A DNA stretch of 64,000 nucleotides. Source: Thysanoteuthis rhombus (Eukaryota > Mollusca > Cephalopoda > Oegopsida > Thysanoteuthidae). A program made the translations under genes and the position numbers. The stretch is from NCBI GenBank assembly GCA_963457665.1, contig OY735225.1, positions 1,094,501 through 1,158,500 on the forward strand, given 5' to 3'. The notes under the pieces are model-generated. The model had not been told where the DNA came from. It searched no databases and worked only from the letters and a program-made list of their open reading frames with translations. This document shows, piece after piece, positions 11,659 to 54,472 of the stretch (its first letter is position 1; each line of letters starts with the position of its first letter).

Positions 11659-14600
11659 GGAGGATTAAAAAAAAACTAAAAAGACTCTCAACATGACCTT
11701 GACATTGTTTTGACTTTACCGAGCCTTCTTCGGACATTAAGACTCAGCGAATTCTATTGGGAAGAATGGGATTTTGTTTCAATTCACTGCCGGAGACCCA
11801 TGATTCCTCTCTGGATATGATCTTTTCGAGGAAATCAGGTCACTGTTAGCAATTTCAAGCCAGTCCTGCACGACTGGGGCATGAAATTCCCTCTGCTCTT
11901 GGGACAGGAACTTTTTTGCCATCACACATTTCATGCCAAGATCCATCAAAATCCCAGCAACAATAGTCAGTGGAATCTGTAGATCCAATTCTTGCACAAT
12001 CAATTGCCAATTTCTTTGATTGTGACCTGCATACATTCAAGATCTCCTCGTGTTCTGCTTGTTGAAGGTCTTTCAGGTTGTGAGTTACTTTCGTAGGATT
12101 TCTGACCTAATTTTGAAGTCAGCACGAAATTTCTATCTAATCTTGGCTCATTAAAACATCTTTGAAAGCCTTCCAAATCATTCAAATAGTTTCTAGTTTC
12201 AAGCAAAATTTGATGCTTATTTTTTAATCTACCAATTCAATCAGTGTGAATGCAACGGTCACACAGTACACAAGCTCACTCAATGGCATCTCATTGTCTT
12301 CTGAATAACCCCAGGAAAGGGTGTCTGTTCATACATGCACAGTAATGTTCCTTTTCATTTACATTAAAACCACACAACCCGTTATCGAGATATTTGAAAT
12401 GACTAGATTACATCTAGATGGACACTTGTGTATAATTTTGTATTTAATGTATGAAGACATTCAGGAAAAAAGCATTCTACTTACATTCTACATTCATACT
12501 GCTATGGACACGGGAGATATTAAGTTTCCTTTTTTTGCTCTGATAGTTACAATCCAATGTCTTGAATAAATCCTTATATCAAAATATTTTGCTTTCTTTT
12601 CATTGTTTTTCCCCTCTTCTATGCCCACGGTGTGTGTGTGTAATCTTCGGATATAGAATTCGACAAATATTAAAGTATTCTGACATTTAGGAAAATTTAT
12701 TTATGTGTTTTGACTATTTGGCTTCAATATTATTTCAGATGATGCCGAATCAGCAAAACATGTAAAATAAATCTTCCTGTATTTTAATATTGTTGAATTT
12801 TATATCCAAATAACACACTTACTATCATACGTAGCATTTTCTGAGATGAGGAACATGATTGAATCAGTTTCTGGTGCTTTGATCGATTCATTTGATGTTG
12901 GTTGGAAAAAATTGAAAAGGAAGGTTATGGCGTAATCTTTTTTGAAAATATTCTGAAGAATATTTTTAATGATGTCCCATGTGTATGTCATTGTGTGCTG
13001 AGACATTTAGCTGATTTTGAATGAGGGGAAGGAAGTTCTTTGATTTGGTTTATACATATGTGCTGACTCACTTCAGCTATTAAAAATTTTAGGGCTTCCC
13101 AGTTGTAGATATTTCAAGAAGTTCCTGATTATTTAATGTACCACATGTCAAAATGTCTGCAAATATTTTCTTTCTGCTTTATCCTGCTGGTTTTCTTTTC
13201 CTTCTGTAACATAGTATATTAGTTTTTCTATCAGATAATAAATGGTGTTTTTAGTTAATGGCATTCCTGTGTGAAAGACTATTTATTTAGTATAGTGTCA
13301 ACTGTAATGACTGAGGGAAATTGATTGAATGTGTCTCTTGGCAATATTGCATCATAAATATTGTAAAACTCCAGTTGAGAAATTATTTTTTGCTTTTTCA
13401 TGTTGAGGTATTCAAGATCTTATTCCTTTATTTCCTTCGGGGTTTTTTTGTTTTGTTTTGTTTTTTTAATAAAACCCAGGATTGAATGGACCTAAAAATA
13501 CTGTCAAGACTAAAAGGTTTCAATATGTCCAAAAGAATATTTTGAAATGAGCATATAAATTTTTCATGACATTTATTTTTTTTAAAAATGTAGCATGAAC
13601 AATATTTACTTGTTGAGGTGTAGATTAGGGACTATTTGAAAACACCCTTGGGTACCTGATTGCGGGGGGCCCTAAAAATAGTAATTGTAAATAGTAGTCA
13701 CCTACTGTATTTTATTGACATTATACAATAACAAATCTCACTTGGTATTGGAGAAAACTAAGGCCCCTGGATCTGCAAAAGGTCAGACTAAAATTTCTAT
13801 GAAAAGCACCAAAAAATTTTAGATGAAAGAAAATGTTAGTCAAAAATTAATAAGTTGACAATGCTTCGTCTGATGAAAAATAAACTATATGCTTTGCCGT
13901 TGTATTATAAAATAAAGGCTGATCTTTTTTCTCGCTTAATTTCAGCTTTGTTGTTCGGTTCATTGAACTGAACGGTCTACAAATCATTTTGGATTTTCTC
14001 AGCAACATGGACTACGAGACTGCCCAAAGTCCAATCCACACATCCATGATTGGTTGTATTAAGGCCCTCATGAACAATTCGGTATGTACTATCCTTTCCA
14101 AAATCTACTGTCAGCTCAGTGTTGCATTCTGTTATTTTAGGTTCATTGATATTGCCAAGGGAGCATTCCTTGCACACCTTCTGAAATGTCTGGACTCTAC
14201 CAAATGATTACAGATTATTTGAAACACATCAAGATGAACCTCTTATGTTGAAGATGCTTGGTGAAAAAACAAACAAACCTGGGTGAATCCATAACCTCTG
14301 ACTAACTTTGTTGGCAGAGGTAAATATTAGAAACCTCTTCAGCCTTGAAAATCATAAGCAAAAAAGATGAATAAAAGGAAAACTAAAGTTCACAAACAAG
14401 ATATGGTTATATTTTTGCAGTAATCTTTGAATTTTAGAAGAAAATTGAAGAAAACAGAATTTTATTTTTAAAAAAACTGAGTCATGCTTATTTTCGTACT
14501 GACAAACTGATTTTTTTAATATTTACTTGGAGAGTACAGTATTATATTCCTTTTTTTTTTTTGTCTAAAATGCAACAGAAAAATATGTATTGTAGCCTAT

Positions 14601-15875
14601 CAAAGTTATTTGACCCTCATATAAGTTTAATATGTGTCTATATTATGTTATACAAATATAACTAAGTTGAATATTTAATTTATCACATTTTTTAAAAGGA
14701 TTTTTGCAATTTGCAAACATAGATGTGTTATTCAAAATTTTATCCAAGATTTGAAAATCAATAAAGTTTTTCTCTTTAGACTCACAAGTGAATACACAAA
14801 AAAATTACTTAAATTGTTTTTGGATTGGATGAGGCTAGATTCGTTAAATTTACTTGGTTATCTAAACAGTGATGAAAATGGGATTTCAGAATTAGGTATA
14901 CAATAAAGCTGGATTTTGGGAACTAGTTATATAGTAATGTCTCCATCAGCAGACATAGAATATACAAAGGACCTAGAAATCGAGAAGTAGGTATACACTG
15001 TATCCCACCACCATGTCTACCTTTGTATAAAAATCTTTTCTGCAATTATCACAATTTTCCGAGTCATCTTCATCTGACACACTTTATTCTTGCTTTGTTT
15101 ATGCTTTAGTTTTTCTCTATAATTCTCCTTAGATAACGGTTCTTGAAATCAATAATCGTATCTCCGTTGAGATTGACAAGAAAATTTTAAGCGGCCAAGT
15201 GAGTATGCAGCACTTAGAGAGAAAAAATGTCAAGCACTACCGATTTCATGCCTTTTAGTTCCTTGATGGATTTCTCGTTATTCCTTCTTACTCACAGTTT
15301 ACCTACTCTGCCTATATTCCTTGTTAGCATTTCTAATAATACTACTATTGTTACCAACCACCCCAAAATAATATCTCTTAGTCTGTCGTCTGAATTAGCT
15401 CTAGTTTTCTAACTTAGTAAATTGTTGTGACTGCACAATAAACCTGGTTTGTTTGCAGCAATGTGAAATGCTTGAGATTTCTCATGGCTGTGAAGTTAAT
15501 AAGCAGTTTCAATCACTGCATCCCTGTAGCTAATGGTTCATGTTGACTATTATACCTTGAAGAAATTCTCTTTAATTGGTCTGTATTCAAAGCACATACA
15601 CTTGTAAAAAGTCCAGCTAAATACTAATCAATTGATGAATCAGTAGCCAAAATCAGATCATTATAATAAATGATCTGATTTTGGCTCTTGGTACCTTACC
15701 TCTTTCAAAATGGCTGCTGCTCCATCTGCAGGGTTAGTATTTTTAAGAATTTGTGTTTGGGTTAAGATTAGTGTTGTCTGCTTCATTGAATTTAAATTCA
15801 CCATCAATGCCTGCCTCTTTACAACTGGAGTGGTGGCCATTTTGAATGGGAAAAGGTCACAATTGCCCTGATTTC

Positions 15876-15930
<55 letters not shown>

Positions 15931-18510
15931 TGTGTGTGTGTATGTATATATATGTGTTTGTTATGGTAACACAGCAAAAATGGTGTATCGTAGTGGAATT
16001 TTTGTGAGCACAAAACTGTTGGTGCTCTGACTTGAGGATTAAAGCGATATCCCATCCCATTTGCAACTTAATCATGATAGTGTGGCCTCTGTGCTTCCAC
16101 CAACCCCATTAATCTATATTATAATGATCTGATTTCTTAAGGTACATAACTCCAGGTATATTAAATGCTAATTATAGAGTGATTTCCTTTATCTATTTCT
16201 CTTGTATCATCCACTATTCTATCCATGTCTGGGAGAAGAAGAGATGGGTTAATGCCTTTCCCAAAAGCATTCATACATATCTCGATCAGTTTGAACTCTG
16301 CTTGTTGATTTCATTTTCTATGCTGTTAACCTCTTGGTTTTGATAATGGCTGCAGTATACCTTCTTTTAGTTATGCAATGAGCGCATGAGAGAATCATGG
16401 TCAACCTCATGTGGAGAGATCACAAGACAGCACAGTATATCAGGGAGAAAACGGCAGTCCAAGACATCATAGAATCTATTGAAAAACTCAAATGGCAATG
16501 GGCAGGCCATATTGCAAGAATAGCATACGACTGATGGACATCACGACTCACAGCAAGGATCACCAGAGATCACATGCGGAACCAAGGCTGACAGAATATA
16601 AGATGGAGAGATGAACTCGATGAATTTGGAAAATACTGGCTCTGCAACGCCCATGATTGAGAATTGTGGCGGATCCTGGGGAAGGTCTACGTCCAACGAC
16701 GGACGTTAAAAGACTGATGATGAACCACTTGGTTACTGGCACCTCCAGCATTCTAGAAAAAAAAACTGTTTGTAATTCAAGCATTTTAGTTGGTTTTTTA
16801 TGATGTCACATTATTTAATGATATTTACACATAAAATATACCATAAGTTGATTAGAAACCATCAACCAAGACTATCAACATGGGTTTCTTCAGTTTCCAA
16901 GTTGCTCTGGCTGGTAGACTGAGCATGAATGCATGATGCATACATGCTGTATTTAGCTAGAGGGCTGAAAATTGAAACATTCTCTCCTTATGTCTAGGAA
17001 AAAAATTTTTTTTTTTTTTACACTTCCCCCCCCTCCCCATATGCACACACACCCAAAAAATAGGTATCTAGTGGGACGTTCAATTTACAATGTGAGTTTT
17101 TACTACACAGATCCCTTAGTTTGTATCTGTCTATTTTTGAAAATTCAGACATTTTTAATGATCGATCACTGCCCAACAAAAGGCAAAAGAAGTATCCATC
17201 GATCACCCTTTTTTCCAATTTTTTAATTGGTCACCCCTCAACATGGCATGTGGCCAAAAGACTGTCATGCAACGCTTTCTATTCAGAGACTAACCAGATC
17301 TGTCTTATTCATAACTAATTATTTGTTTCCATTACTTAACTGTGTGTCCTGCTGGGATAGACGTATTCATAATTGATATTTTTTAACATAAATATTGTTA
17401 CAGGCATAGGATAAAGAGATTTAAAAACCCATATATCTGTCCTTAAATATTCATTACATGCTCATTTAGCCAATTTTTAAGTAACAGTCCATTGTAGTTA
17501 TATTGTAAAACTGTTGGGTACTCCTACTACTACTGATGTCAACTCCTACTGCCTCTTTTGTAGGCAGTGTGCAAGGCTGGAGAGTACAACAATCAAAATG
17601 TGACTATAACAACCAAGATGAAGACACCAGTTTGAACGAATTGGTGTATAACAAAATTCTACGTTTAGGAAGTGGAGAAATTCATTGAACAATTTTTGTA
17701 GTTTAAATCTAAAATTCGATTTTGAAATATTTTAGATTTAAATCAGAAGAAAAAATGTTGAAATTTCCAAATAGAAATCTTTCTATTCTAAGTTTCCGTC
17801 CACAACTGATTCAGAGATTTTATTTGAAAAAAGTATTTAATTTGAAGAAATGGTATTCCTTTAGTCTTTTGAAGACTAGTGTTATTAAGTAAACTAAAAC
17901 TGATACGCAAACAAGTACTAGTTCTCTCATACCCTGACCTCAATGCACTCAAGTTATTCAGCCTGGGAGCTCAAATCATTGCCAATTTTTTTGCAATTAC
18001 TTGTCCATCCAAGTCAAGCAAATATGATTAGATCTTCTCTCTCATCTCCTTTTCCTCCTCTATGTCTTCTTTTCTCCGTTCTCAAAATTGAACAATCATG
18101 AATCGATTTATCTGATGAGATCTATCAAGAGAATTCAAGTCTGTATAGATAAAGTTAGCCGATCCATAAACAGACTTTCTTACCCTGAAGGCAATGAGCT
18201 AATCTTGTTCATTGATTGAGAATGTGACTGCAAGAAATGCTGATCTGAAATGTCAGTCAACCGTGCTGGTAAGTTCGGTTTGTTTGCAGAAATAACTTAC
18301 AGAAAACAAACCAATTGAGTTCCATTAATAGAACAATTATTGCATGGCATGTGTTCTGCACAGATCTAATCTTATCTTATGAAGTCTTCCTTATTTTGAT
18401 ATTAAGACCAGTTCTCTTTGAGTATTAGCATAAATATTTTCTATTTCAAGTCCCATGAACAATATATTAGAACCCTTTTCAAAGAAAATGAAATAAATTG
18501 TCTAGTCTGC

Positions 18511-18591
<81 letters not shown>

Positions 18592-19277
18592 ATTGTTGTC
18601 TTTTAAATTATAGCACGCGATACTAATAAAAAAGATCTATATAAATAATAAAAAAAATGAGATATATTCCCCAAGCGAATTTGTTTCATACTTATCAGTG
18701 AGGCAAACTGATTTTATATTGTATCTTTTCCATTGTTTTGTTCTTTATTCATTTGCCATAAATAGTGCAGGCTTATCATTCCACACGATACGAGCATCAA
18801 CTGCTTGCAATATAGAAAGAACGACCAATGACGAAGCATAAATTTTCGAAAATTCTAAAAGAATGAAAGACAAAAAGATGTACAAAAATGTAAAAATATT
18901 TTAGTGTCTGCAAAAATCAATAGACAGCTGAATCTTTTTTCTTTTTCCCCAATGTAAGGAAGGTGGTCCCAATTGTAGGAATAAGAGAATCAATGGAAAA
19001 CAGAATTTGGATTAGACACTTTTATGAGCAGATGATGGTGTTCAATCCAAATTAGTTTTTTTTCATTAATTCTTTCTGCTTTTTATATTTTTGCCATTTG
19101 TGACACCGAATGAGCAAGTGTGTGCAACTTTACAATTTATAATCAGGACAATCTTCCCTGCATCGTACCAAAAAGGCTTTTACTATCTTATGCTTTTTAT
19201 AGATGCTAAAATATTTTTACATTTTTGTACATCCATAACATACAGTACATCCAAGATGCAAAACACCATACACCACT

Positions 19278-19342
<65 letters not shown>

Positions 19343-20891
19343 TACAGTGAGACTAGTGATTTCATTAAATCCTTGTTATTGAAAGAAATTAAGTTTTCAA
19401 GTTTGTACACCCAGTAAGGATTGAACTCAATACAGCAGTCATGGTTACTAATGCTTATTAACCATTACAACACTCTAGTGTACACATATTGTAAATACCA
19501 AAGCAGAATACACTTAATGTTAACTAAATTTAGTCTAATTTGACACTCTGGTTAGGATCAAATTCAATTGATTATTATTGGCCAGCATCACATGCTTGTT
19601 AACCATAACTACACTGATTGTGAAACTGAGGCTTTCATGAAATTAATGAAGTGTTTAGGAATTTCACAGAATCGCAATCTCACTATAACATATAGTACTA
19701 GTCCTAAATATTGGAACAAACAGACATTTTGCTTCAATAAAAACAGATTTTATGCTTGTTCAAATACTTATTAGCAGTACATTAGTATGTGAACAAGCAA
19801 AGGTTTTTAGTGGGGGATTTAATATACAATCTAAGTTAATGCTAAATTGGTCATTAGATTGTGCCCACTTGTATTTTGAAAGCTCTGATCTTTTTTAGAG
19901 ATCACTGCCAAACAAAAGTTGAGAGAAATAACTTATTCATTGATCACCCTTTTTCCCAACTTAATTGATCACCCCCAACACTGTGTATATGGGTGGCAGT
20001 GATTCATATTTCCCCTTGCTAGTTCATTGTATAATACATTTTTCCTTTTTTAGATGTGTCCACACATCTCTATAAGATGCTTTTCCGGCTGTTGGTCAGT
20101 CCGAGTCGCATCAAACTACAGAAATAAGAATAGGTATGATGTCATTAAAGGTATGACATCATTAAGAAACCAACTAATCCATTACTGCTCCTTACAGATT
20201 TGTATTGTATATTTATCAGTTTTCTCAGATTAATTTCTCCAGAAATTGATATCTTTCAATAGCAAAAGACACTCTTGAATACTAATCAATTATTTTCTAG
20301 CTCCCATGTGGATAAATCTATGTTGTAATCTGAACAAATATCAGTTTATCAAGGAAGAAGCAATCAAAGTTGTATAGAATATATGCAAGTTAGATATTCT
20401 TCTCAAGGAATTTTCAGCAAAAAATTCTGAAAACGAACATCTACTGTCAGGTAATTCTAAAAACTATTGTGAACTGTGGATATAATCCTTTACCGTACCC
20501 CTGATGGAACAACAAAGCAAACAATATGTATAAAAATATTTTTAGTTTGTTTATGTTGACTGAGTGGCCCTTTATTTCCAAAAGACAAAACAATCCTTTG
20601 ACAAAAAGTGTTGCATGTAGAGAAAGTTTTTCTGTGTGTGCATGTGTTCTTTTGATTACTACGAGATCGCTTTCCAGATGCCTGGATTTTCAGCTCATGC
20701 TAGGATAGTTATTTCTGTCCTTATCTATGATAACTTCATTTCTCTCTCTCTCTTTTTATCAGGATTGATTTGCCCAAATGAATAGGACTCCATTATCTCT
20801 CTCTTGTCTGTCTTAATTCAGCCTCACACTGTTGAGATGCTACAAGAAAAGTCTCCAGCATTATCTTGAAACATTCAAACTACATACACAG

Positions 20892-20934
<43 letters not shown>

Positions 20935-23900: not shown

Positions 23901-26900
23901 TATTACTGAAAGACTGTTTCATCCAGCCCTTTGAAGTGTAACTTCCTTGACCTAAATAATTCTGTGCTTTTAGGCCCAGACTCCAGTTTCTTTACACTCT
24001 CCCTGATTTTGTGGCTCGCTTTCAGAATTTTGTGGATTATTGTTTTTTTGTGACTATACCTCTCCATAGGGTTGGCCCGGCTCTTGCCACATTCTTGTCC
24101 CTTAATAAATTCTAGTAGTAGACATAGATGAACTACATTAAGAAGCCATAATGGATGCAAACCCCTACTTCCAGTAAGTTCAGAACAAAAAATCATGCAG
24201 TAAATTTTTTAAAAAGTTTCCGGCCAATGTTTTTTGCTTTATTTATTAAACTTTGTTTGTTTAATTCAAAATGGATCCATGAGTTTGTTAGAGCCAAAAT
24301 TCATTATTGTGAGGGTTTACTGTATTTGTGATTTTGTTGACGGCAGCAGTACCACTGGCACTATTACACCAAATAAATTACGTTTAGATACATATTGTTG
24401 CCTCAAAGAAAATTATATTTTGAAAGGTTACAGTGGTATACTTGGATAAGACATCTACAAAAAGTATTTCCTAAGTGTATTATATCCTAGAAATGTATGA
24501 TTTTCAACCTACTTTGTACTTTTCTAATAAAATTTCTTGTTTACTGTTAAGAACTGTGGTCCTCTTTCTTGAAGCATCATTTTATTAGAAACTGTTGGTA
24601 TAGATTTGTTCAGTTTTCAAGACTGGATTTGTATGCACCATGTGTACTGGCCGCACCAATGTAGCCAGAGGGCTGAAAATTTGAACATTTAATGTCTGGG
24701 GGAAAAAAAAAGGTTTCTACTGTGACCGACTGGACTCCTCCTAAATTTCTTTTTCTTATCTTGCAGCAAAGCCGTGCACATGTTTTGGCTCATCCTAACA
24801 GTATCAACATCATCGCACAGAGCCTCAGTTCAGAAAACATCAAAACTAAAATTGCAACTTTTGAGATTTTGGGTGCCATGTGTTTGGTACCTGGAGGACA
24901 TCGAAAGGTTCTGGAGGCAATGTTGCATTATCAGAAGTATGCATCTGAGAGGGCCCGTTTTCAGGTATTCATCTACCTTTATTCACCCTTATCCATCCAT
25001 CCATATCCACCCTTATCTGCCAGCCCAAACTTATCTGCCTGTCCACCTGCCCTTGTCTGCCTGCCCAACTCAACTACCTGCTTGTCCCCCCCTTTACCCT
25101 TATCTATATGCATCCTTCTAGCTCAGTCCCTTCTCCATCTTTCCACTTTTCACGTTCAAATTATTGATGTTTCATTATTGTAGTTTGATTGGAAAATGTT
25201 TTCATTGATTGTTGGTGTAAAATCTCAATTCTTTGATATATTTATTGAATAATAGCAATATTTCCGATTGGCTATTTTAAAAATAATTGTAAATATTTGG
25301 TATTTGGTGATTGTTTGGTTCCTGTTATTCTGTTATAATTAAATTTTGTTTTTCAATTGAACAATTCAGAGCTAATTGCTTAATCCATTAACTGCAGATG
25401 GAAATTTCTGTCATCGCAGTTCTGTTGCTGACTCAATAAAAAATTTTCTTTTATTGTGTTTGATGGAAACTTGGTTCTCTCTGTGAGTCAAGGCTTTTAT
25501 CTTGGAATGGACAAGGTTTTTTATCTTGCATACACTTGTCACCTACCACAGTTAATGGTTTAATACTATAAAGTAACTTGCTTTCAATCATAAATCTCTT
25601 TCTATTGATTGTGATTTATTCAGGTTAGATTCTATTCTCATCTGTCTTTTTCTGTTTTTGATCTTGTAAGATCAAGTTCTGTTGATTCACTTGAATCTGG
25701 AACTGTTTGGTCAGCTCAAACTCATTTCCATTCAATGAGATTTGATTTAATCCAGTCAGTTTAAATTCAGTTTTGATCACTTGATCTGGGTTCAATTAAG
25801 CAAAGATTTGTTTCATAGACATTAAGGTTAGGTAATTATTATGTTTCTATTGGCTTTCATGTATTTTGTAATTTAATTTTTGAATATTTTGTTTTAGACT
25901 ATCATCAATGATCTGGACAGAAGTACTGGTATCTATAAAGAAGAAGTTGGCTTGAAAACTGCCATCATGTCATTCATAAATGCAATATTGAACTATGGAG
26001 CTGGACAGGTAAGTTCAAAGTTTGATACTTGTTTTAGCTATGAAGACTAAGAAATGGAAAATATTTGTTTAATTTTGATACTGATGAGCATTTTTGTCAA
26101 AAGGTATTTCTCTGAGTTAATCTTACACAACTTTGTTTCAAGTGAAAGAATTTATCTGAATGAATTCATAACTGATAATAACTTGAACATTTGAATTCAT
26201 AGAAAATTTTTTTTTTACTTTCATGAGAACTTATAATTCAAGTTACTTCCCTTTGAACTTGAATTTTTTTTAGATTCTGCTCAATTCCTGGAAGAATTCT
26301 CCATCTTTTATGTTATTCACGGAAGAATTCTATCAATTATGAGTGGTTACCAGTGATCTAGGAACTTGAGAGTTTATTTTTATTTCTTTTAGTGTGTGAA
26401 TTACAAAAAAAAAATCTTTGAAGAACATACGATTCACATTATATACATAGGCGCTTCTCAAAAGTTTTACAAATTTGACCATGTAAGAAAATGATTAAAT
26501 GTAACACCTGGCTTCCACCGTCTCTTGCTAGAAATATTATCTAATATTGTCAAAGCCTTTATGAAATATTACTTTATGAAAGGAAACAAGATTCATTCAA
26601 TGAGGCAGCTATAAACAATTAAGTGTCATTATGCCACTGTTTCATTGTTTAAACCATTTTTATCAATATGAAAAATTCATATTAGTGATAAAACTATTTT
26701 AAATCTTTCTTCCAGACTCAGCTAGAATTTAGACTCCATCTTCGTTATGAGTTCCTTATGCTTGGAATTCAGCCAATTATTGATAAACTGCGTTCACATG
26801 AAAATGCAGTTCTTGACAGGTAAATATTAAATTTCCCATCTTTGATTTGTTCTCAGAATTTGATTCCCATATTCTATGTTTCAAAAAATAGTTAAATGTC

Positions 26901-52000: not shown

Positions 52001-54472
52001 TTTTTTAACTACTTATTACTTTTATCTCAATTTATTTGATGCTTTTTATTGCAACCTTTGATCAGACCAATTACCCTTCAGCAGTGTGTAGACAGCGTTG
52101 ATCAGAAAATAAAGAATCAGCCTCAAGTGAGATTTTAATCCACATCCCTTGTTTGGCCTCAGTCAAAGTTGCTATAAAAAGCACTAGATAAATTGAGATG
52201 AAGGTGAAAAGTGGTCATAAAATCAAGTATGATTTATAATATTTCATCAAATAAAAAAAGATTATTGAAATATTTTTCAACTTTTTAAAAAATTTTCTTT
52301 TTCCTTTTCATTTTTCTCCATAGCAAAAGAGGGAAAAGGAAAAGCTACGTATGTTGAAAAAACAGGATTCCGTGGCGAGCAATCACTCTCAAGAAAAGGG
52401 GCTCATTAATGGAGTGCCGGAAAACACAGAAAAAGGTTTGGAATTTGTGTTGCTTTCTTTTAAAAGTAAAATTCTTGTATTTTTATTTCAGAGTTTGCAA
52501 AGTATCAACTCTCTCTGCAGTCGTCATTCAGCAAAGCAGACCTATGAGATAAAGATGAAATTAAGTAAAATATTGCCACCTTGGCCTAAAAATGAATCAG
52601 TGTAGCCAAGTTGCATCATTTTTCTCACAATATCCTCTCTCTCTGTAAGTTCTTATCTCTCTGTCAAGACTTTACTAACACTCCTACCCCATCCCAGCTC
52701 TTCAGATGGTGATACAAGGTTACATAAAGCAAAACATGATTTGGTGAGATCAAAGGCTCTGGGTGACTTTCAGGTTTAAGGGTAAAGGAATAACAAAACT
52801 AGTTGGACACAAAAAAAAAAGAAGTAATTTTTGTATGAAGAAATTGAAATTTACCCATTTATGCATTCTCCCTCTCTGACGCTGTCTTCTTCCTCCCTCT
52901 CTGACGCTGTCTTCTTCCTCCCTCTCTGACGCTGTCTTCTTCCTCCCTCTCTGACGCTGTCTTCTTCCTCCCTCTCTGACGCTGTCTTCTTCCTCCCTCT
53001 CTGACGCTGTCTTCTTCCTCCCTCTCTGACGCTGTCTTCTTCCTCCCTCTCTGACGCTGTCTTCTTCCTCCCTCTCTGACGCTGTCTTCTTCCTCCCTCC
53101 TTTCTCATATGCTCTACACTATCTCTCTCTCTCTCATATGCTCTACACTATCTCTCTCTCTCTCTCATATGCTCTACACTATCTCTCTCTCTCTCTCATA
53201 TGCTCTACACTATCTCTCTCTCTCTCTCATATGCTCTACACTATCTCTCTCTCTCTCTCATATGCTCTACACTATCTCTCTCTCTCTCTCATATGCTCTA
53301 CACTATCTCTCTCTCTCTCTCATATGCTCTACACTATCTCTCTCTCTCTCATATGCTCTACACTATCTCTCTCTCTCTCTCATATGCTCTACACTATCTC
53401 TCTCTCTCTCATATGCTCTACACTATCTCTCTCTCATATGCTCTACACTATCTCTCTCTCATATGCTCTACACTATCTCTCTCTCTCTCATATGCTCTAC
53501 ACTATCTCTCTCTCATATGCTCTACACTATCTCTCTCTCTCTCATATGCTCTACACTATTTCTCTCTCTCTCGTATGCTCTACACTATCTCTCTCTCTCT
53601 CATATGCTCTACACTATCTCTCTCTCTCTCATATGCTCTACACTATCTCTCTCTCTCTCGTATGCTCTACACTATCTCTCTCTCTCTCATATGCTCTACA
53701 CTATCTCTCTCTCTCTCATATGCTCTACACTATCTCTCTCTCTCATATGCTCTACACTATCTCTCTCTCTCTCTAATTACACTGCATACAATACATAAAT
53801 ATTATTAGAAAATGAAATTGGTAAAGAGAACTGAAAATCTATAATAATTGCTTATGTCATTTTTACACTAATGCTTTGAGAAAAGACATGAATCTAACTC
53901 TCCCTTGTCGTCTTGACTAATATATTATCACAGGTATACCATGATAATAATCCAAGAAAAGAGTATGTGAATGAATACATGAGAAACTCACTTATCCAGA
54001 AAAACTCACAAATTTTTGACGATCATTATTTATAAACTAACAGAGTTCCTACAAAAAAATGACGAGATAATTCAAAGTATAGAGTGGTATTTCTGTGTAG
54101 ATTCTGTTCATTCAACTTAAGATCAAAGTGTTGATTATGAGTGCAGTATATGTATGCTCATTGAAAAGTGTAACACACAACATATATATATATATATACA
54201 TTGCATTTGATATATGTGGATTTTGTCTGATATTGTGTGTATATATGCTCATTTTCATTCCAAATAATGAATGAGAATTGAAGGAAATCCCAAAGAAATG
54301 AAATTCACATTTTCTTTCTTTTTTTTCTTTAGGAGAATTCGATGATCTAATCTCTGCTCTACGAACTGGAGATGTATTTGGTGAAGATATGGCCAAAATG
54401 AAGAGGACTCGACGACGAGCCAATGCACCAGCAGACACATCACGAGAACGCATTGGAAAAGTCAAATGTTGA
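2868..54472 (+). CDS. Daam: DAAM-type formin, 5' partial, 23 exons joined
   Basis: The spliced product is a DAAM-family formin, a Rho/Dishevelled-linked factor that nucleates and elongates unbranched actin filaments and acts in planar cell polarity and cytoskeletal control. Twenty-three exons join in phase to 3048 nt (1015 residues plus stop). In this partial protein, residues 1 to about 345 are the GBD/FH3 (diaphanous-inhibitory, armadillo) region, about 350-435 a coiled coil, about 490-520 a short FH1 with runs of 12 and 6 prolines, about 535-935 FH2, and about 970-1000 a DAD followed by a basic patch. FH2 signatures include [22 protein letters not shown] and [15 protein letters not shown]. 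The order and length match human DAAM1 (1078 residues, recalled), less about 90 N-terminal residues. No initiator Met or promoter is in the window. DAAM1 and DAAM2 are probably not distinguished in an invertebrate. Family assignment is firm; exon edges rest on splice consensus and homology. Confidence 0.96.
3957..4047. repeat. (TA)n microsatellite
   Basis: About 90 bp of nearly pure TA with a few AAATA interruptions at its right end. Confidence 0.98.
4785..4965 (+). mobile_element. tRNA-headed SINE-like segment
   Basis: A box-like tggctcagtcggtaagaga follows an (AT)n tract. A weak B box (gttcaatc) lies about 150 bp on, too far for a tRNA, so this is at best a decayed SINE. Confidence 0.35.
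5395..5714 (+). repeat. Repeat A copy 2
   Basis: Shares agagctagaggactgaaact, the C-run plus ggtcaatttccaatgtaa, and tttctattgagtgactaacc with the other copies. The central gatcactgcc block is deleted. Confidence 0.8.
6480..6900 (-). pseudogene. Tc1-like transposase relic
   Basis: Minus-strand reading gives [19 protein letters not shown] followed by CEVRKKHPEN, aligning with the Tc1 motif WPAYSPDLNPIEHVWDML. The catalytic Glu is Gln. Stops and frameshifts are present. Confidence 0.6.
7032..7120 (+). CDS. Daam: Daam exon 2 in window
   Basis: Acceptor tttcag, donor gtgtgt; 29 codons plus 2 nt. It encodes [10 protein letters not shown], equal to the family's ESLKTALRTKPMRF segment at the start of the FH3/DID armadillo fold. 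The codon split over the junction (AG+C) reads Ser where mammals have Arg. Confidence 0.95.
7355..7795 (-). repeat. Repeat B copy 1
   Basis: Reverse complement of the element at 31360-31735. Shared blocks include the tgtccaccatc segment, agagcaag, and the ccttccttc/tttctgttcaacatag/actgactga stretch. Class unknown. Confidence 0.65.
8320..8600 (+). repeat. Repeat D copy 1
   Basis: Its left part (aaccattgtacgaagt, ccaccagatatgttagtc) recurs at 31895-31990, and its right part (aaaaggcttttattgtcc, tgaaatatttttacatgttc, aagcaccatatgccagtgg) recurs at 19130-19290. Confidence 0.65.
9238..9640 (+). repeat. Repeat A copy 3
   Basis: Nearly full-length: aggtttcttcagttttcaag, accattggagctaagg, agtgatcactgcccaaca, then ctattgagtgacttaccaga at its right end. 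Confidence 0.85.
10015..10046. repeat. (TA)n microsatellite
   Basis: Pure AT dinucleotide tract of about 30 bp. Confidence 0.97.
10133..10201. repeat. (CA)n(TA)n compound microsatellite
   Basis: About 18 bp of CA running directly into about 50 bp of TA. Confidence 0.98.
11008..11051. repeat. (TA)n microsatellite
   Basis: Pure TA tract of about 42 bp. Confidence 0.97.
11593..11655. repeat. (TA)n microsatellite
   Basis: Pure TA tract of about 60 bp at the 3' side (minus strand) of a mariner relic. Confidence 0.97.
11656..12330 (-). pseudogene. Mariner transposase relic
   Basis: Minus-strand reading gives [17 protein letters not shown], then [47 protein letters not shown] and a tail [10 protein letters not shown]. 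This follows the mariner order GRPSTSRT, DLGMRRVSAKFVPRLL, EQ..R..V.QDLLE.AN.D. Only the N-terminal half is visible, and frameshifts are needed, so it is a dead fragment. Confidence 0.75.
13946..14081 (+). CDS. Daam: Daam exon 3 in window
   Basis: Acceptor tttcag, donor gtatgt; 1 nt plus 45 codons, ending in phase 0. It encodes [18 protein letters not shown] and [15 protein letters not shown], a near-exact match to the DAAM DID armadillo repeats. The following intron holds the candidate cassette exon. Confidence 0.97.
15133..15198 (+). CDS. candidate alternative Daam cassette exon (66 bp, in frame)
   Basis: A pyrimidine-rich stretch and AG (tctccttag) precede 66 nt that are open in phase 0 and end in caa|gtgagt. 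The flanking exons 3 and 4 are also joined in phase 0, so inclusion would add 22 residues (beginning ITVLEINNR, ending ILSGQ) between ALMNNS and QSRAHVL without a frameshift. The segment is richer in G+C and CpG than the surrounding intron, as the real exons are. I recall no equivalent insert in human or fly DAAM, so this may be a lineage-specific alternative exon or a pseudo-exon that passes by chance in a 10.7-kb intron. Confidence 0.5.
15645..15686. repeat. Perfect inverted repeat (hairpin)
   Basis: 18-nt arms agccaaaatcagatcatt and its exact complement, separated by a 6-nt loop. The same aatcagatcattat motif recurs at 16117-16136 (inverted) and 55682-55700, so the hairpin is probably part of a dispersed repeat. 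Confidence 0.9.
15881..15954. repeat. (TA)n(TG)n compound microsatellite
   Basis: About 46 bp of TA then TG-rich sequence. Confidence 0.97.
16384..16716 (+). pseudogene. Non-LTR reverse transcriptase C-terminal relic
   Basis: Plus-strand reading gives [35 protein letters not shown], then [20 protein letters not shown] and [17 protein letters not shown], with in-frame stops. This is the conserved end of a LINE ORF2. Confidence 0.85.
16853..17302 (+). repeat. Repeat A copy 4
   Basis: The longest copy, from ttagaaaccatcaacc through gggtttcttcagtttcca, agctagagggctgaaaa, gatcactgcccaacaaaagg and gacatggcatg-like catggcatgtggcc to gactaaccagatctg. Confidence 0.88.
18514..18588. repeat. (TA)n microsatellite
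   Basis: About 75 bp of TA with a single G interruption. Confidence 0.98.
19130..19290 (+). repeat. Repeat D copy 2 (right part)
   Basis: Shares ccaaaaaggcttttactatc, gctaaaatatttttacat and aaacaccatacaccactggc with 8474-8600, then runs into a (TA)n tract. Confidence 0.65.
19280..19342. repeat. (TA)n(TG)n microsatellite
   Basis: About 50 bp of TA followed by six TG units. Confidence 0.97.
19800..19995 (+). repeat. Repeat A copy 5 (partial)
   Basis: Right-central part only: tgctaaattggtcattag, gagatcactgccaaacaaaa, aacttattcattgatcaccc, ttaattgatcacccccaaca. Confidence 0.75.
20045..20160 (+). repeat. Repeat B copy 2 (partial)
   Basis: Shares agatgtgtcc, the ggtcagtccgag/catcaaactacagaaataag block and tatgatgtcattaaag with 31360-31460 and 48605-48760. 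Confidence 0.6.
20890..20933. repeat. (GT)n(TA)n microsatellite
   Basis: Short GT then TA tract. Confidence 0.95.
21100..21200 (+). mobile_element. tRNA-like SINE head, tentative
   Basis: An A-box-like tggctgaatgcttagg is followed about 65 bp later by a B-box-like gactcaattccc. No clear tail. It may be a decayed SINE. Confidence 0.3.
22890..23120 (-). pseudogene. Tc1-like transposase C-terminal relic
   Basis: Minus-strand reading gives [19 protein letters not shown], then (after a frameshift) [20 protein letters not shown]. This matches the Tc1 C-terminus SPDLNPIENLWxxIK...EEWNNI...LxxSMPRR. The third catalytic acid (Glu of IENLW) is Arg. Confidence 0.75.
23472..24322 (-). mobile_element. 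Pogo/Tigger-like DNA transposon relic with TIRs
   Basis: Ends are imperfect inverted repeats, ctgtaaacaccttgctatta at the left and the complement of ttattgtgagggtttactg at the right, both next to TA. They resemble the pogo/Tigger terminus CAGTAAACCCTCGCTATAA. The minus-strand inside reads [17 protein letters not shown], then [26 protein letters not shown] and [18 protein letters not shown] after a frameshift: the CENP-B-type HTH half of a Tigger transposase. The DDE half is missing. Confidence 0.82.
24588..24692 (+). repeat. Repeat A copy 6 (left part)
   Basis: ttagaaactgttggtatag, ttcagttttcaag, gccagagggctgaaaattt, truncated after ttaatgtctgggg; about 75 bp before the exon 4 acceptor. Confidence 0.75.
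24767..24964 (+). CDS. Daam: Daam exon 4 in window
   Basis: Acceptor cttgcag, donor gtattc; 66 codons, phase 0 at both ends. Landmarks are [38 protein letters not shown] and [20 protein letters not shown], the most conserved armadillo block of DAAM. A truncated repeat A copy ends about 75 bp upstream of the acceptor. Confidence 0.98.
24965..25897 (+). other. Daam intron between exons 4 and 5
   Basis: Begins with a degenerate C+T-rich direct repeat (ccacccttatctgcc-like units, about 24978-25100). Otherwise ordinary AT-rich intron with nothing recognised. Confidence 0.7.
25898..26008 (+). CDS. Daam: Daam exon 5 in window
   Basis: Acceptor gttttag, donor gtaagt; 37 codons, phase 0. It encodes [11 protein letters not shown] and [19 protein letters not shown], matching the DID helices of DAAM. 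Confidence 0.97.
26009..26715 (+). other. Daam intron between exons 5 and 6
   Basis: AT-rich intron; no repeat, RNA gene or mobile element recognised. Confidence 0.7.
26716..26819 (+). CDS. Daam: Daam exon 6 in window
   Basis: Acceptor cttccag, donor gtaaat; 34 codons plus 2 nt. It encodes [20 protein letters not shown], nearly identical to the family, followed by [10 protein letters not shown]. Last part of the armadillo core. Confidence 0.98.
26820..27643 (+). other. Daam intron between exons 6 and 7
   Basis: The left half is plain AT-rich sequence. The right half is repeat A copy 7, so only about 45 bp separate the repeat from the acceptor. Confidence 0.75.
27222..27599 (+). repeat. Repeat A copy 7
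   Basis: From ttagaaacagtcaaac through taggtttctttcaagtttgg, agctagagggcttaaaattt and agtgatcactgctcaacaaa to ggtgactaaccagacctgtt. Confidence 0.87.
27644..27710 (+). CDS. Daam: Daam exon 7 in window
   Basis: Acceptor ttcttag, donor gtaagt; 1 nt plus 22 codons. It encodes [20 protein letters not shown], in the dimerisation part of the FH3 region. A repeat A copy ends only about 45 bp upstream of the acceptor. Confidence 0.96.
27960..28290 (+). pseudogene. Non-LTR reverse transcriptase C-terminal relic
   Basis: Same family and strand as 16384-16716: cacaatatatcagggaaaag, tccaaatggcaatggcc, ctgatggacatcatgactca, agatgaactagacaaattca, gtgaatcctggggttgg. It is more decayed, with several stops. 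Confidence 0.8.
29215..29415 (-). pseudogene. Reverse transcriptase C-terminal relic, second LINE family
   Basis: Minus-strand reading gives [46 protein letters not shown] and RRLQFLIKG. It matches the LINE tail motif L+WFGHVTRHDSL.KTILQGT.EGGR.RGRQRK. A longer open frame over the same bases is a shadow. Confidence 0.7.
29967..30084 (+). CDS. Daam: Daam exon 8 in window
   Basis: Acceptor tctttag, donor gtaagt; 39 codons plus 1 nt. It encodes [19 protein letters not shown] and [16 protein letters not shown], matching the DAAM helices (VHIDTKSATQMFELTRKRL in human). Confidence 0.96.
30085..31188 (+). other. Daam intron between exons 8 and 9
   Basis: Half of it is the pogo-like MITE at 30276-30834; the rest is plain AT-rich intron. 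Confidence 0.75.
30276..30834. mobile_element. Pogo/Tigger-like MITE
   Basis: Left end aagtaaactcttgctataac and right end gttatagcaagggtttactg are inverted repeats (one difference in the inner 15, more outside), each next to TA. The ends match those of 23472-24322. Inside, no transposase frame is visible, so it is a 559-bp non-autonomous derivative. Confidence 0.85.
31189..31324 (+). CDS. Daam: Daam exon 9 in window
   Basis: Acceptor ttctgtag, donor gtaagt; 2 nt, 44 codons, 2 nt. It encodes [20 protein letters not shown] and an [10 protein letters not shown] tail, at the end of the FH3 region. Confidence 0.96.
31325..32730 (+). other. Daam intron between exons 9 and 10
   Basis: Left part is repeat B copy 3 (31360-31990) with the left part of repeat D at its end. 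32000-32730 shows nothing recognised. Confidence 0.65.
31360..31990 (+). repeat. Repeat B copy 3 with repeat D left part
   Basis: Starts at agacacttgtcggtcgg with four ggtcagtc-type units, then caaacaacagaaataagaag, gatgtggtgtcattaaaa, ctattaccatagatggtgg and, at 31895-31990, tagccattgcacgaaat and tcaccagatatatttgtc. This suggests repeats B and D may be parts of one longer element. Confidence 0.6.
32731..32857 (+). CDS. Daam: Daam exon 10 in window (coiled coil)
   Basis: Acceptor atccacag, donor gtttgt; 1 nt plus 42 codons. Charged heptad-like sequence with [16 protein letters not shown] and [13 protein letters not shown], matching the DAAM coiled coil that precedes FH1. Confidence 0.94.
33622..33652. 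repeat. (TA)n microsatellite
   Basis: Pure AT tract of about 30 bp. Confidence 0.96.
33908..34025 (-). pseudogene. 5S rRNA-derived sequence
   Basis: The minus strand aligns end to end with the 3' two thirds of animal 5S rRNA: agttaagcaacattgagcct, ggtcagtacctagatggg, taaccatctgggaatacca. The internal promoter A box and C box regions are well kept, while the 5' third is diverged. It could be a retroposed 5S pseudogene or the head of a 5S-derived SINE. Confidence 0.85.
34115..34380 (+). pseudogene. LINE (CR1/L2/jockey-like) ORF2 C-terminal relic
   Basis: Plus-strand reading gives [27 protein letters not shown], then [20 protein letters not shown] and SCLDR with a stop. This is the typical tail L.YEERL..L.LP.L.YRR.RGD.I......WN.LPE.V..A.S...FK..LD. 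A poly(A) run (34271-34286) interrupts the frame. Confidence 0.85.
34554..34676 (+). CDS. Daam: Daam exon 11 in window (coiled coil)
   Basis: Acceptor gtccaacag, donor gtaagg; 41 codons, phase 0. It encodes [20 protein letters not shown] and [10 protein letters not shown], the second half of the coiled coil. Confidence 0.94.
34677..35318 (+). other. Daam intron between exons 11 and 12
   Basis: AT-rich intron; nothing recognised. Confidence 0.7.
35319..35595 (+). CDS. Daam: Daam exon 12 in window (FH1)
   Basis: Acceptor tttttcag, donor gtatat; 92 codons plus 1 nt. It begins with a short charged end of the coiled coil, then a low-complexity Ser-rich linker ([13 protein letters not shown]), then FH1 with [11 protein letters not shown], a 12-Pro run and [13 protein letters not shown]1 recruits profilin-actin and feeds FH2. 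It is shorter than the mammalian FH1 as I recall it, with fewer separate Pro runs. Confidence 0.95.
35596..38107 (+). other. Daam intron between exons 12 and 13
   Basis: Holds a degenerate direct repeat of agatctttYatccaaaat-like units (35870-36060) and two related 35-bp segments (ttttggccaat plus (CA)-rich) at 37014-37050 and 37244-37282. No transposon or extra proline-rich exon seen. Confidence 0.65.
35870..36060. repeat. Degenerate tandem repeat
   Basis: At least four copies of agatctttYatccaaaat at irregular spacing (near 35872, 35905, 35937, 36038), separated by T-runs. Confidence 0.6.
38108..38214 (+). CDS. Daam: Daam exon 13 in window (start of FH2)
   Basis: Acceptor ttttcag, donor gtaagt; 2 nt plus 35 codons. 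It contains APMGISST, a basic LRRKNIP stretch and the FH2 lasso motif [11 protein letters not shown], which wraps the partner subunit in the FH2 dimer. Confidence 0.97.
38252..38288. repeat. (TA)n microsatellite at SINE tail
   Basis: TA tract directly abutting the tail end of the minus-strand SINE. Confidence 0.95.
38289..38650 (-). mobile_element. tRNA-headed SINE
   Basis: On the minus strand the A box is tagctcaatggcaagagca and the B-box region gttcgatttcctgctgcaa, followed by a conserved body (ctatgatgtctaggcc, tcatttcaaataagag). Same family as 56920-57190 and 47930-48090; it ends in (TA)n. Confidence 0.85.
38660..38735 (+). mobile_element. SINE head fragment in opposite orientation
   Basis: ctgtttaggtcaatggtaag and gagcaacactatttcaaagc, then ggaaccctattggttgc: a plus-strand copy of the SINE head, about 130 bp from the minus copy. 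Confidence 0.8.
39040..39466 (+). repeat. Repeat A copy 8
   Basis: ttagaaactatcaacc, gagctagagggctggaaaat, tgatcattgcccaacaaaag, catggtatgctgccaaaaga, tgaatgactaaccagacctg. Confidence 0.88.
39557..39601 (+). CDS. Daam: Daam exon 14 in window (FH2 lasso)
   Basis: A 45-nt exon, 15 codons in phase 0: [15 protein letters not shown]. It carries the second lasso Trp and matches NKLEGTVWTEIDDTK of human DAAM1. Acceptor tttttcag, donor gtgtgt. A repeat A copy ends about 90 bp upstream. Confidence 0.95.
39962..40031. repeat. (GT)n(TA)n(CA)n compound microsatellite
   Basis: GT, about 58 bp of TA with one interruption, then CA: a nearly palindromic microsatellite. Confidence 0.97.
40515..40540 (+). 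repeat. Repeat A right-end fragment
   Basis: Only gaatgacaaaccaggtctgt matches the last 20 bp of repeat A. It sits 34 bp before the exon 15 acceptor and may be chance. Confidence 0.4.
40574..40938 (+). CDS. Daam: Daam exon 15 in window (FH2 linker and knob)
   Basis: The largest exon, 121 codons plus 2 nt; acceptor tctaacag, donor gtatgt. It encodes [15 protein letters not shown], an acidic linker (QLEEEEDKS), [29 protein letters not shown]-like [19 protein letters not shown] and [12 protein letters not shown]. The Ile of the VIDGRRA motif corresponds to the actin-contact Ile known in FH2 domains. Confidence 0.98.
40939..42635 (+). other. Daam intron between exons 15 and 16
   Basis: Has short (TA)n/(TG)n tracts near 41629-41800. 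42490-42545 carries a gcacctgaagaagcctggtg ... ccaaaacatt pattern of the kind found near the 3' ends of some retroelements, but no coding support. The rest is unassigned. Confidence 0.5.
42636..42724 (+). CDS. Daam: Daam exon 16 in window (FH2)
   Basis: Acceptor ttttcag, donor gtaaga; 1 nt, 29 codons, 1 nt. It encodes [20 protein letters not shown], matching INHYQQRLQSLYFKKKFAER of human DAAM1. Confidence 0.97.
42725..43250 (+). other. Daam intron between exons 16 and 17
   Basis: Contains repeat C copy 1 (42983-43033); otherwise nothing recognised. Confidence 0.65.
42983..43033 (+). repeat. Repeat C copy 1
   Basis: gtgctcattgaaaagtgtta followed by cacacaa; the same block is at 54138-54184. 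Confidence 0.6.
43251..43465 (+). CDS. Daam: Daam exon 17 in window (FH2 core)
   Basis: Acceptor ttttatag, donor gtaagt; 2 nt plus 71 codons. It holds the FH2 signature [15 protein letters not shown], then [20 protein letters not shown] and [10 protein letters not shown]. Confidence 0.98.
43905..44770 (-). pseudogene. Non-LTR reverse transcriptase relic with catalytic motif
   Basis: The longest LINE remnant here. The minus strand reads [12 protein letters not shown] (from the family's QGDTISPKLFTA), [32 protein letters not shown] (the F-x-D-D catalytic box), then [35 protein letters not shown] and the C-terminal tail. Stops and frameshifts break it. The tail is the same family as 2360, 16384 and 27960. 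Confidence 0.88.
45340..46300 (-). mobile_element. Tc1-like transposon relic with TIRs and TA flanks
   Basis: Left end cgggtggaaa and right end tttccacctg are inverted repeats, each bordered by TA, as Tc1/mariner insertion predicts. The minus strand reads [54 protein letters not shown] (first catalytic Asp) and [18 protein letters not shown] (second Asp region; Glu replaced). Stops and frameshifts make it inactive. Confidence 0.9.
46391..46452 (+). CDS. Daam: Daam exon 18 in window (FH2)
   Basis: Acceptor ctttttag, donor gtaagt; 20 codons plus 2 nt encoding [20 protein letters not shown], matching YPSVLNLNEELRDIPQAAKV. A Tc1 relic ends about 90 bp upstream. Confidence 0.95.
46453..46746 (+). 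other. Daam intron between exons 18 and 19
   Basis: Short intron; note a local duplication of cttatgtgttatacaattttt around 46650-46700 (ttatgtgttatacaattttt occurs twice). Confidence 0.6.
46747..46807 (+). CDS. Daam: Daam exon 19 in window (FH2)
   Basis: Acceptor ctttttcag, donor gtttgt; 1 nt plus 20 codons: [20 protein letters not shown]. It matches the MTELDKEISTLRSGLKAVET helix of human DAAM1. Confidence 0.95.
47510..47690 (-). mobile_element. Internal fragment of the piggyBac-like MITE family
   Basis: tttagatgttttttagttga, gatgccagtgatatcataaa, ttctgaccatatttatcctt and the following T-run are the reverse complement of 58340-58470. No ends are visible here. Confidence 0.65.
47884..48092 (-). 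mobile_element. tRNA-headed SINE (partial)
   Basis: Minus-strand B box ggttcaattcctgcagcagc, then the body with aattgtttattctattta. The A-box side is cut off by the next SINE. It ends at a (TA)-rich tract (47857-47883). Confidence 0.75.
48093..48175 (+). mobile_element. tRNA-like SINE head of a second type
   Basis: gcttctgtggctaaattgg and tagcgtgc form an A box; caggttttcaaatcttg forms a B box 50 bp later. It has tRNA-like length (about 80 bp) and no clear cloverleaf, so it is read as a SINE. Confidence 0.55.
48377..48508 (+). CDS. Daam: Daam exon 20 in window (FH2 post domain)
   Basis: Acceptor tttacag, donor gtgaga; 44 codons, phase 0. It encodes [20 protein letters not shown] and [10 protein letters not shown], matching KFVSVVSQFITVASFSFSDV. 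Confidence 0.97.
48605..48760 (+). repeat. Repeat B copy 4 (partial)
   Basis: ttagatgtgtccgcacttc, gtcggccggtcattcaatca, taaaagatgtcattaaaa. Confidence 0.6.
48775..49035 (+). pseudogene. Reverse transcriptase C-terminal relic, third LINE family
   Basis: One frame reads [20 protein letters not shown], followed by a decayed stretch and [11 protein letters not shown] with stop, matching LINE tails of the type KW.WAGH+AR..D.RW......W.P....R..GRP..RW.DE. Confidence 0.75.
49140..49545 (+). repeat. Repeat A copy 9
   Basis: ggaatagatttcttcagttt, gagctagaaggctgaaaatt, gtgctgctgaaagatgttga, tttctattaagtgacttgcc. Confidence 0.85.
50049..50213 (+). CDS. Daam: Daam exon 21 in window (end of FH2)
   Basis: Acceptor attgtcag, donor gtaaat; 55 codons, phase 0. 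It encodes [20 protein letters not shown] and the highly charged helix [19 protein letters not shown] that exits FH2. Confidence 0.97.
50214..52323 (+). other. Daam intron between exons 21 and 22
   Basis: No repeat family or coding relic recognised. 51830-51960 is relatively GC-rich and may be an unidentified repeat. Confidence 0.55.
52324..52435 (+). CDS. Daam: Daam exon 22 in window (linker before DAD)
   Basis: Acceptor ctccatag, donor gtttgg; 37 codons plus 1 nt. It encodes [16 protein letters not shown] and a non-conserved stretch up to PENTEK. The donor (aaaaag|gtttgg) is weaker than most here. Confidence 0.92.
52870..53106. repeat. 25-bp minisatellite, nine copies plus partial
   Basis: Unit ccctctctgacgctgtcttc + ttcct, identical in all nine full copies at 25-bp spacing from 52870 to 53094. 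On the plus strand it is almost all pyrimidine. Confidence 0.98.
53107..53775. repeat. 28-31 bp minisatellite, about 23 copies
   Basis: Unit catatgctctacactat followed by a (CT)n run of variable length, which makes the period vary by twos. Two copies have cgtatg in place of catatg. Open frames rich in Leu/Ser/Tyr across it are a by-product of the repeat. Confidence 0.98.
54138..54184 (+). repeat. Repeat C copy 2
   Basis: tatgctcattgaaaagtgta then acacacaa, as at 42983-43033; followed by a short (TA)n tract. Confidence 0.6.
54333..54472 (+). CDS. Daam: Daam last exon (DAD) with stop codon
   Basis: Acceptor ttctttag after a long pyrimidine tract; 2 nt, 45 codons and TGA. It encodes [16 protein letters not shown], the diaphanous autoregulatory core, then the basic [10 protein letters not shown] patch and a tail ending RERIGKVKC. 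The DAD binds the N-terminal DID and keeps the formin closed until Dishevelled/Rho engage it. The tail resembles human SSRERPITKLNF. Confidence 0.97.

What the first reader, a model, noticed from the sequence alone, without database searches (positions are those of the whole stretch)
15133..15198. Candidate in-frame cassette exon inside the DAAM autoinhibitory (DID) domain
A 66-nt segment with good splice signals on both sides (tctccttag / gtgagt) is open in the same phase 0 that joins exons 3 and 4. It would insert 22 residues between ALMNNS and QSRAHVL, within the armadillo repeats that bind the DAD. Inclusion could loosen or retune autoinhibition. Its raised G+C and CpG content relative to the intron resembles the true exons. 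I recall no such insert in human or fly DAAM.
Basis: partly seen in the sequence, partly recalled or inferred. Interest (0 to 1): 0.72.

Follow-up and report, generated by a model that had tools for sequence, protein, structure and literature searches.

The report
Possible extra exon in DAAM formin
Inside a large intron of an animal gene for the actin-building protein DAAM lies a short stretch that looks like a real optional exon; if used, it would add 22 amino acids at the edge of the pocket with which the protein holds itself switched off, but only RNA data can show whether it is used.

Summary
Splice signals and frame alone are within chance. With codon content added, it ranks first of 56 or second of 65 phase-matched candidate exons in 51 kb of introns, against 0.10-0.31 expected from Markov nulls. 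It is no copy of a modelled DAAM exon and has no second copy in the window. By alignment the insert falls between the equivalents of human DIAPH1 M225 and I231, two of four residues lining the pocket for a key DAD residue (PMC10656230, passages), so inclusion should weaken or retune autoinhibition. No transcript, related animal genome or own-genome search was available. Verdict: a spliced exon about 0.55; an optional exon that alters autoinhibition about 0.4. Ordinary in kind (alternative splicing), unusual in place.

The parts
15133..15198 (+). candidate exon, 66 nt, phase 0 on both sides, [22 protein letters not shown]
15113..15132 (+). acceptor with pyrimidine-rich tract; a yUnAy branch-point-like word starts 35 nt upstream of the exon (about 15098)
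   Evidence: score 7.1 with the recalled matrix, 4.8 with the gene's own; motif
15199..15204 (+). donor GTGAGT
   Evidence: score 9.4, 9.8
13946..14081 (+). upstream DAAM exon, ends ...KALMNNS in phase 0
24767..24964 (+). downstream DAAM exon, QSRAHVL...RARFQ, phase 0
54333..54455 (+). DAAM exon with the DAD-like stretch ([15 protein letters not shown]...MKRTRRR), the partner that the DID would bind; its 3' end was not determined
   Evidence: (aligned to the recalled human DAAM1)

Best explanation
The segment is a genuine small exon of this DAAM gene. As it is absent from the human-like protein that the other exons spell, it is most likely an optional (cassette) exon. Shown: two splice sites in the range of the gene's other exons, symmetric phase 0, open frame, exon-like codon and CpG content, no second copy in the window. 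Inferred: some transcripts include it; the 22 residues loop out between two armadillo helices beside the DAD-binding pocket; the longer isoform holds its DAD less tightly and is thus less autoinhibited, or answers to another signal, while the skipped form is the standard autoinhibited formin.
For: Rank 1 of 56 and 2 of 65 phase-matched candidate exons in the introns; nulls expect 0.10 and 0.10-0.31 per 51.4 kb; 0 of 106 antisense intronic pairs as good. Codon log-odds 4.1 bits, reached by 2.3% of 12,852 open intronic 66-mers and above 59% of 439 held-out windows of modelled exons. Four CpGs. Codon score and CpG at the candidate's level coincide in three places only: the candidate, a likely retroelement remnant at 16.6 kb, and 35.3 kb, which belongs to an exon that my model had cut short. 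Insertion point between pocket residues and inside INF2 residues 107-115.
Against: No transcript and no relative. Splice signals and frame alone are within chance. Forty-four intronic clusters reach the candidate's codon score, and 5.9% of 13,427 antisense open 66-mers do. In one search one antisense pair scores higher (it lies over the exon at 35.3 kb); a 36-nt segment at 28266 ranks above the candidate. An insert in a conserved fold is unlikely a priori; with the insert the Pfam Drf_GBD score falls from 82 to 68 bits and the match splits.
Confidence: 0.4

Rival explanations
1. Chance pseudo-exon: intronic sequence that by accident has two good splice sites, an open frame and some CpGs, and is not spliced.
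For: Pairs of this splice strength are as common on the antisense strand (39 in 64 kb) as in sense introns (35 in 51.4 kb); 0.1 to 1.8 expected in frame, by the score used. The encoded peptide has no match in Pfam above cut-off (41-residue frame) or in the PDB. The place is in a conserved domain.
Against: The joint splice, codon and CpG profile: as good and as CpG-rich 1 time in 4,000 kb of Markov-5 sequence, 0.013 per 51.4 kb.
Confidence: 0.4
2. Spliced but not functional: a young exon included at low level as splicing noise, its product misfolded or degraded.
For: Good splice sites suffice for some inclusion; a 22-residue insert in an armadillo repeat may misfold (inference).
Against: Exon-like codon and CpG content would not be expected of a young exon.
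Confidence: 0.1
3. A constitutive exon of this lineage: always included, part of the normal DID here.
For: Splice strength in the range of the other exons; nothing in the sequence marks it as optional.
Against: Exons 3 and 4 join in phase without it and then match mDia1 without a gap at this point.
Confidence: 0.05
4. A remnant of a mobile element with ready-made splice sites.
For: The same intron holds a likely retroelement remnant at about 16.4-16.7 kb (sequence; the label is recalled).
Against: No second copy of the segment in the window; no Pfam match above cut-off for its open frame. The genome could not be searched.
Confidence: 0.05

Closest known systems
Neuronal microexon of vertebrate DAAM1 (Polinski et al. 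2025; seen only as titles in the reference lists of two papers; the paper itself is not held)
   Same: A small in-frame optional exon in a DAAM gene.
   Different: That one lies in the FH2 part (recalled) and is a microexon; this one is 66 nt and lies in the DID.
Drosophila DAAM isoforms PB and PD (PMC9102401, passages)
   Same: One DAAM gene with more than one protein form.
   Different: The passages seen do not describe an insert in the DID; that the two forms differ at the N-terminus is recalled.
DIAPH3 isoforms that lack parts of the GBD/DID (recalled; the search did not list such a paper)
   Same: Splicing in the autoinhibitory half of a formin.
   Different: Those remove sequence (recalled); this would insert 22 residues beside the DAD pocket.

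Membership tests
DAAM-type diaphanous-related formin (the host gene) | GBD/DID, FH1, FH2 and DAD in this order, most like DAAM | tested here: met
   Collinear tblastn hits from residue 94 to 1071 of human DAAM1, the query typed from recall; Pfam Drf_GBD 82 bits for joined exons 3 and 4. Other formins were not used as tblastn rivals; residues 1-93 were not found in the window.
Cassette exon | Flanking splice sites, length divisible by 3, phase equal to that of the flanking exons, no stop | tested here: met
Cassette exon | Included in some transcripts and skipped in others | not testable with these tools
   No RNA data.
Cassette exon | Frame and splice sites kept in related species | not testable with these tools
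   No related animal sequence: searches confirmed none; own-genome search unanswered.
Neuronal microexon | At most 27 nt (as stated in abstracts listed) | tested here: not met
   66 nt.
Neuronal microexon | UGC close upstream of the acceptor (rule recalled) | tested here: inconclusive
   UGC at -31, -42 and -92; no null was run for this.

The most novel reading that the evidence does not exclude
A lineage-specific, tissue-regulated exon inserts a short loop into the DAD-binding pocket of DAAM, so that splicing, and not only a GTPase or Dishevelled, decides whether this formin is autoinhibited.
Probability: 0.25. Interest if true: 0.65.

Novelty: new variant of a known kind. Interest (0 to 1): 0.38.

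Why it matters
Formins such as DAAM are switched on by releasing the DID from the DAD. A spliced insert between two residues of that very pocket would be a genetically encoded way to set the switch, besides control by GTPases, and would be easy to test by measuring DAD binding with and without the insert. If it is never used, it is a fair example of how good a pseudo-exon can look.

Tried and rejected
Duplicate of a DAAM exon: rejected; the best local alignment to the joined translations of 12 of the 21 modelled exons scores 18, reached by 1,998 of 2,000 shuffles; against the recalled human DAAM1 it scores 23, reached by 1,640 of 2,000. A by-eye likeness to a stretch of exon 4 was thus not borne out. 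Repeat: no match in the window beyond 15 identical bases for blastn-short, and two weak relaxed matches that do not overlap the segment; no tandem array over it. Structured RNA: no Rfam match at gathering score in 13500-25500; fold z-score -0.36, 65 of 200 shuffles fold as well. Splicing motifs: no UGCAUG or GCAUG within 200 nt on either side; UCUU/UUCUCU words upstream at -20, -45, -66, -99 could be PTB-like sites but no null was run. Secondary structure of the peptide: propensities lean slightly to beta (1.09 against 1.03 over the whole), too weak to argue from. Relatives: exon-4 protein in genome contigs and viral contigs, none confirmed. Literature: ten searches; among the rows listed I saw no title or abstract start on a DID cassette exon in DAAM; several lists were cut (for instance 20 of 266) and many papers are not held, so this is weak evidence of absence.

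Full report
What is there. The window carries a DAAM formin gene on the + strand. Collinear tblastn hits to human DAAM1 (sequence typed from recall) run from residue 94 at 2871 to residue 1071 at 54451; I modelled 21 exons with splice sites and phases. Residues 1-93 gave no hit. Three introns of this model join exons in clashing phase and so lack an exon or a piece of one: the FH1 exon more likely starts at 35319, an exon probably lies at about 46400 ([17 protein letters not shown]), and another at 52324-52435. The exon ending at 14081 (KALMNNS, phase 0) and the one starting at 24767 (QSRAHVL) are separated by 10,685 bases. The candidate starts 1,051 bases into this intron: tttttctctataattctccttag | 66 nt | gtgagt, read in phase 0 as [22 protein letters not shown]. 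The other two frames contain stops.

Chance, by splice signals. With a generic matrix from recall the sites score 7.1 and 9.4; 11 of the 21 modelled exons have a lower sum, two of them with an uncertain or absent site. That alone proves nothing: 35 pairs at least as strong lie in 51.4 kb of sense introns and 39 on the antisense strand of the whole 64 kb; with length divisible by three and phase 0 open, 2 and 1. A Markov-4 simulation of 6,000 kb gives 214 such pairs, 1.8 per 51.4 kb, or 0.43 if both sites must reach the candidate's values.

Chance, with coding content. Codon log-odds trained on the modelled exons (without the FH1 exon) is 4.1 bits for the candidate. Of 12,852 open intronic 66-mers 2.3% reach it, in 44 clusters; of 13,427 antisense open 66-mers 5.9% do; and it exceeds 59% of 439 windows of exons each scored by a model trained without that exon. 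Four CpGs occur in 0.46% of 47,578 intronic 66-mers (the candidate and missed exons included) and in 3.2% of 1,367 exonic ones. Both together occur in three clusters: the candidate; 16.6 kb, which reads like a retroelement remnant (label recalled); and 35.3 kb, part of the FH1 exon as extended. Summing splice and codon scores, the candidate is first of 56 phase-matched symmetric pairs; one antisense pair, in three phases, scores higher and lies over the exon at 35.3 kb; 4,000 kb of Markov-5 sequence give 8 as good, 0.10 per 51.4 kb, and 1 as CpG-rich too. With matrices from the gene's own 20 acceptors and 20 donors it is second of 65, behind a 36-nt segment at 28266; 0 of 106 antisense intronic pairs are as good, and Markov-2, -4 and -5 nulls (3,000 kb each) expect 0.19, 0.10 and 0.31. 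Third in that list is a pair that starts at 52324, the acceptor of the likely missed exon (with another donor), so the scan does pick up real exon starts.

Where it would act. The formin relatives of this region in the PDB are the DIDs of mDia1/DIAPH1, INF2, FMNL1 and FMNL2 (at a lax threshold, also lists one zinc-finger chain). In the alignment, DAAM ALMNNS|QSRAHVL stands without a gap against mDia1 AFMNNK|FGIKTML. A solution study of DIAPH1 names M225, I231, L262 and A265 as the pocket of DAD residue 1199 (PMC10656230, passages). Identity and spacing of these four fit the mDia1 stretch with one constant offset, so M225 is the M of MNN and I231 the I of FGI. The insert would lie between them, just after the position of K228, which that paper reports among cross-links to the DAD. 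For INF2, PMC10368640 (passages) places N110 in the DAD contact and lists residues 107-115 as part of the predicted pocket. Counting along the INF2 alignment, with the offset of 2 between chains 9w46 and 9azp and taking 9azp as natively numbered, N110 is the first N of MNN, and the insert falls between 112 and 113. The gene has its own DAD-like stretch at 54333. A 22-residue insert here should disturb or reshape the pocket; that it does, and in which direction, is inference. The insert lowers the Pfam Drf_GBD score from 82 to 68 bits and splits the match.

What it is not, as far as tested. Not a copy of any of 12 modelled DAAM exons compared, and no second copy in the window; not in a tandem array; no Rfam family at gathering score; not unusually stable as RNA.

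What could not be tested. The exon-4 protein found no confirmed relative in genome contigs or viral contigs, which are not collections of animal genomes, and the own-genome search did not complete. There are no RNA data. So use, skipping, regulation and selection are open. The species is unknown; low G+C (0.329), low CpG (observed/expected 0.28), TA microsatellites and long introns would fit a mollusc, perhaps a cephalopod, but that is a guess.

Weighing. The chance expectation is about 0.1-0.3 by the joint score. My guess, from no call, is 0.2-0.3 true hidden in-frame exons in a gene like this. That gives roughly even odds, raised by the CpGs and lowered by the unlikely place in a conserved domain. 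I put a spliced exon at about 0.55, and the fuller reading, an optional exon that alters autoinhibition, at 0.4.

Noticed in passing
28266-28301: A 36-nt in-frame segment ([12 protein letters not shown]) that scores second and first among candidate hidden exons; it has no CpG.
   Followed up: no
35319-35595, about 46400, 52324-52435: Likely DAAM exons or exon parts that homology search missed: a longer FH1 exon, a short FH2 exon, and a basic exon before the DAD.
   Followed up: partly
52868-53773: Two adjoining minisatellites in the intron before the DAD exon, 25 bp x 9.3 and 29 bp x 23.1; the 52001-54000 stretch has a GC skew of -0.41.
   Followed up: partly
16382-16705, 28032-28178, 29218-29604 (-), 48780-48980: Stretches that read like the W-W-AGH-AR region of LINE proteins (label recalled). 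Of these, 16382-16534, 28032-28178 and 29218-29604 were scanned against Pfam: no match above cut-off.
   Followed up: partly
15882-15926, 18514-18588, 19281-19330, 20903-20934: TA/AT dinucleotide arrays of 16 to 37.5 copies in the same 10.7-kb intron.
   Followed up: no
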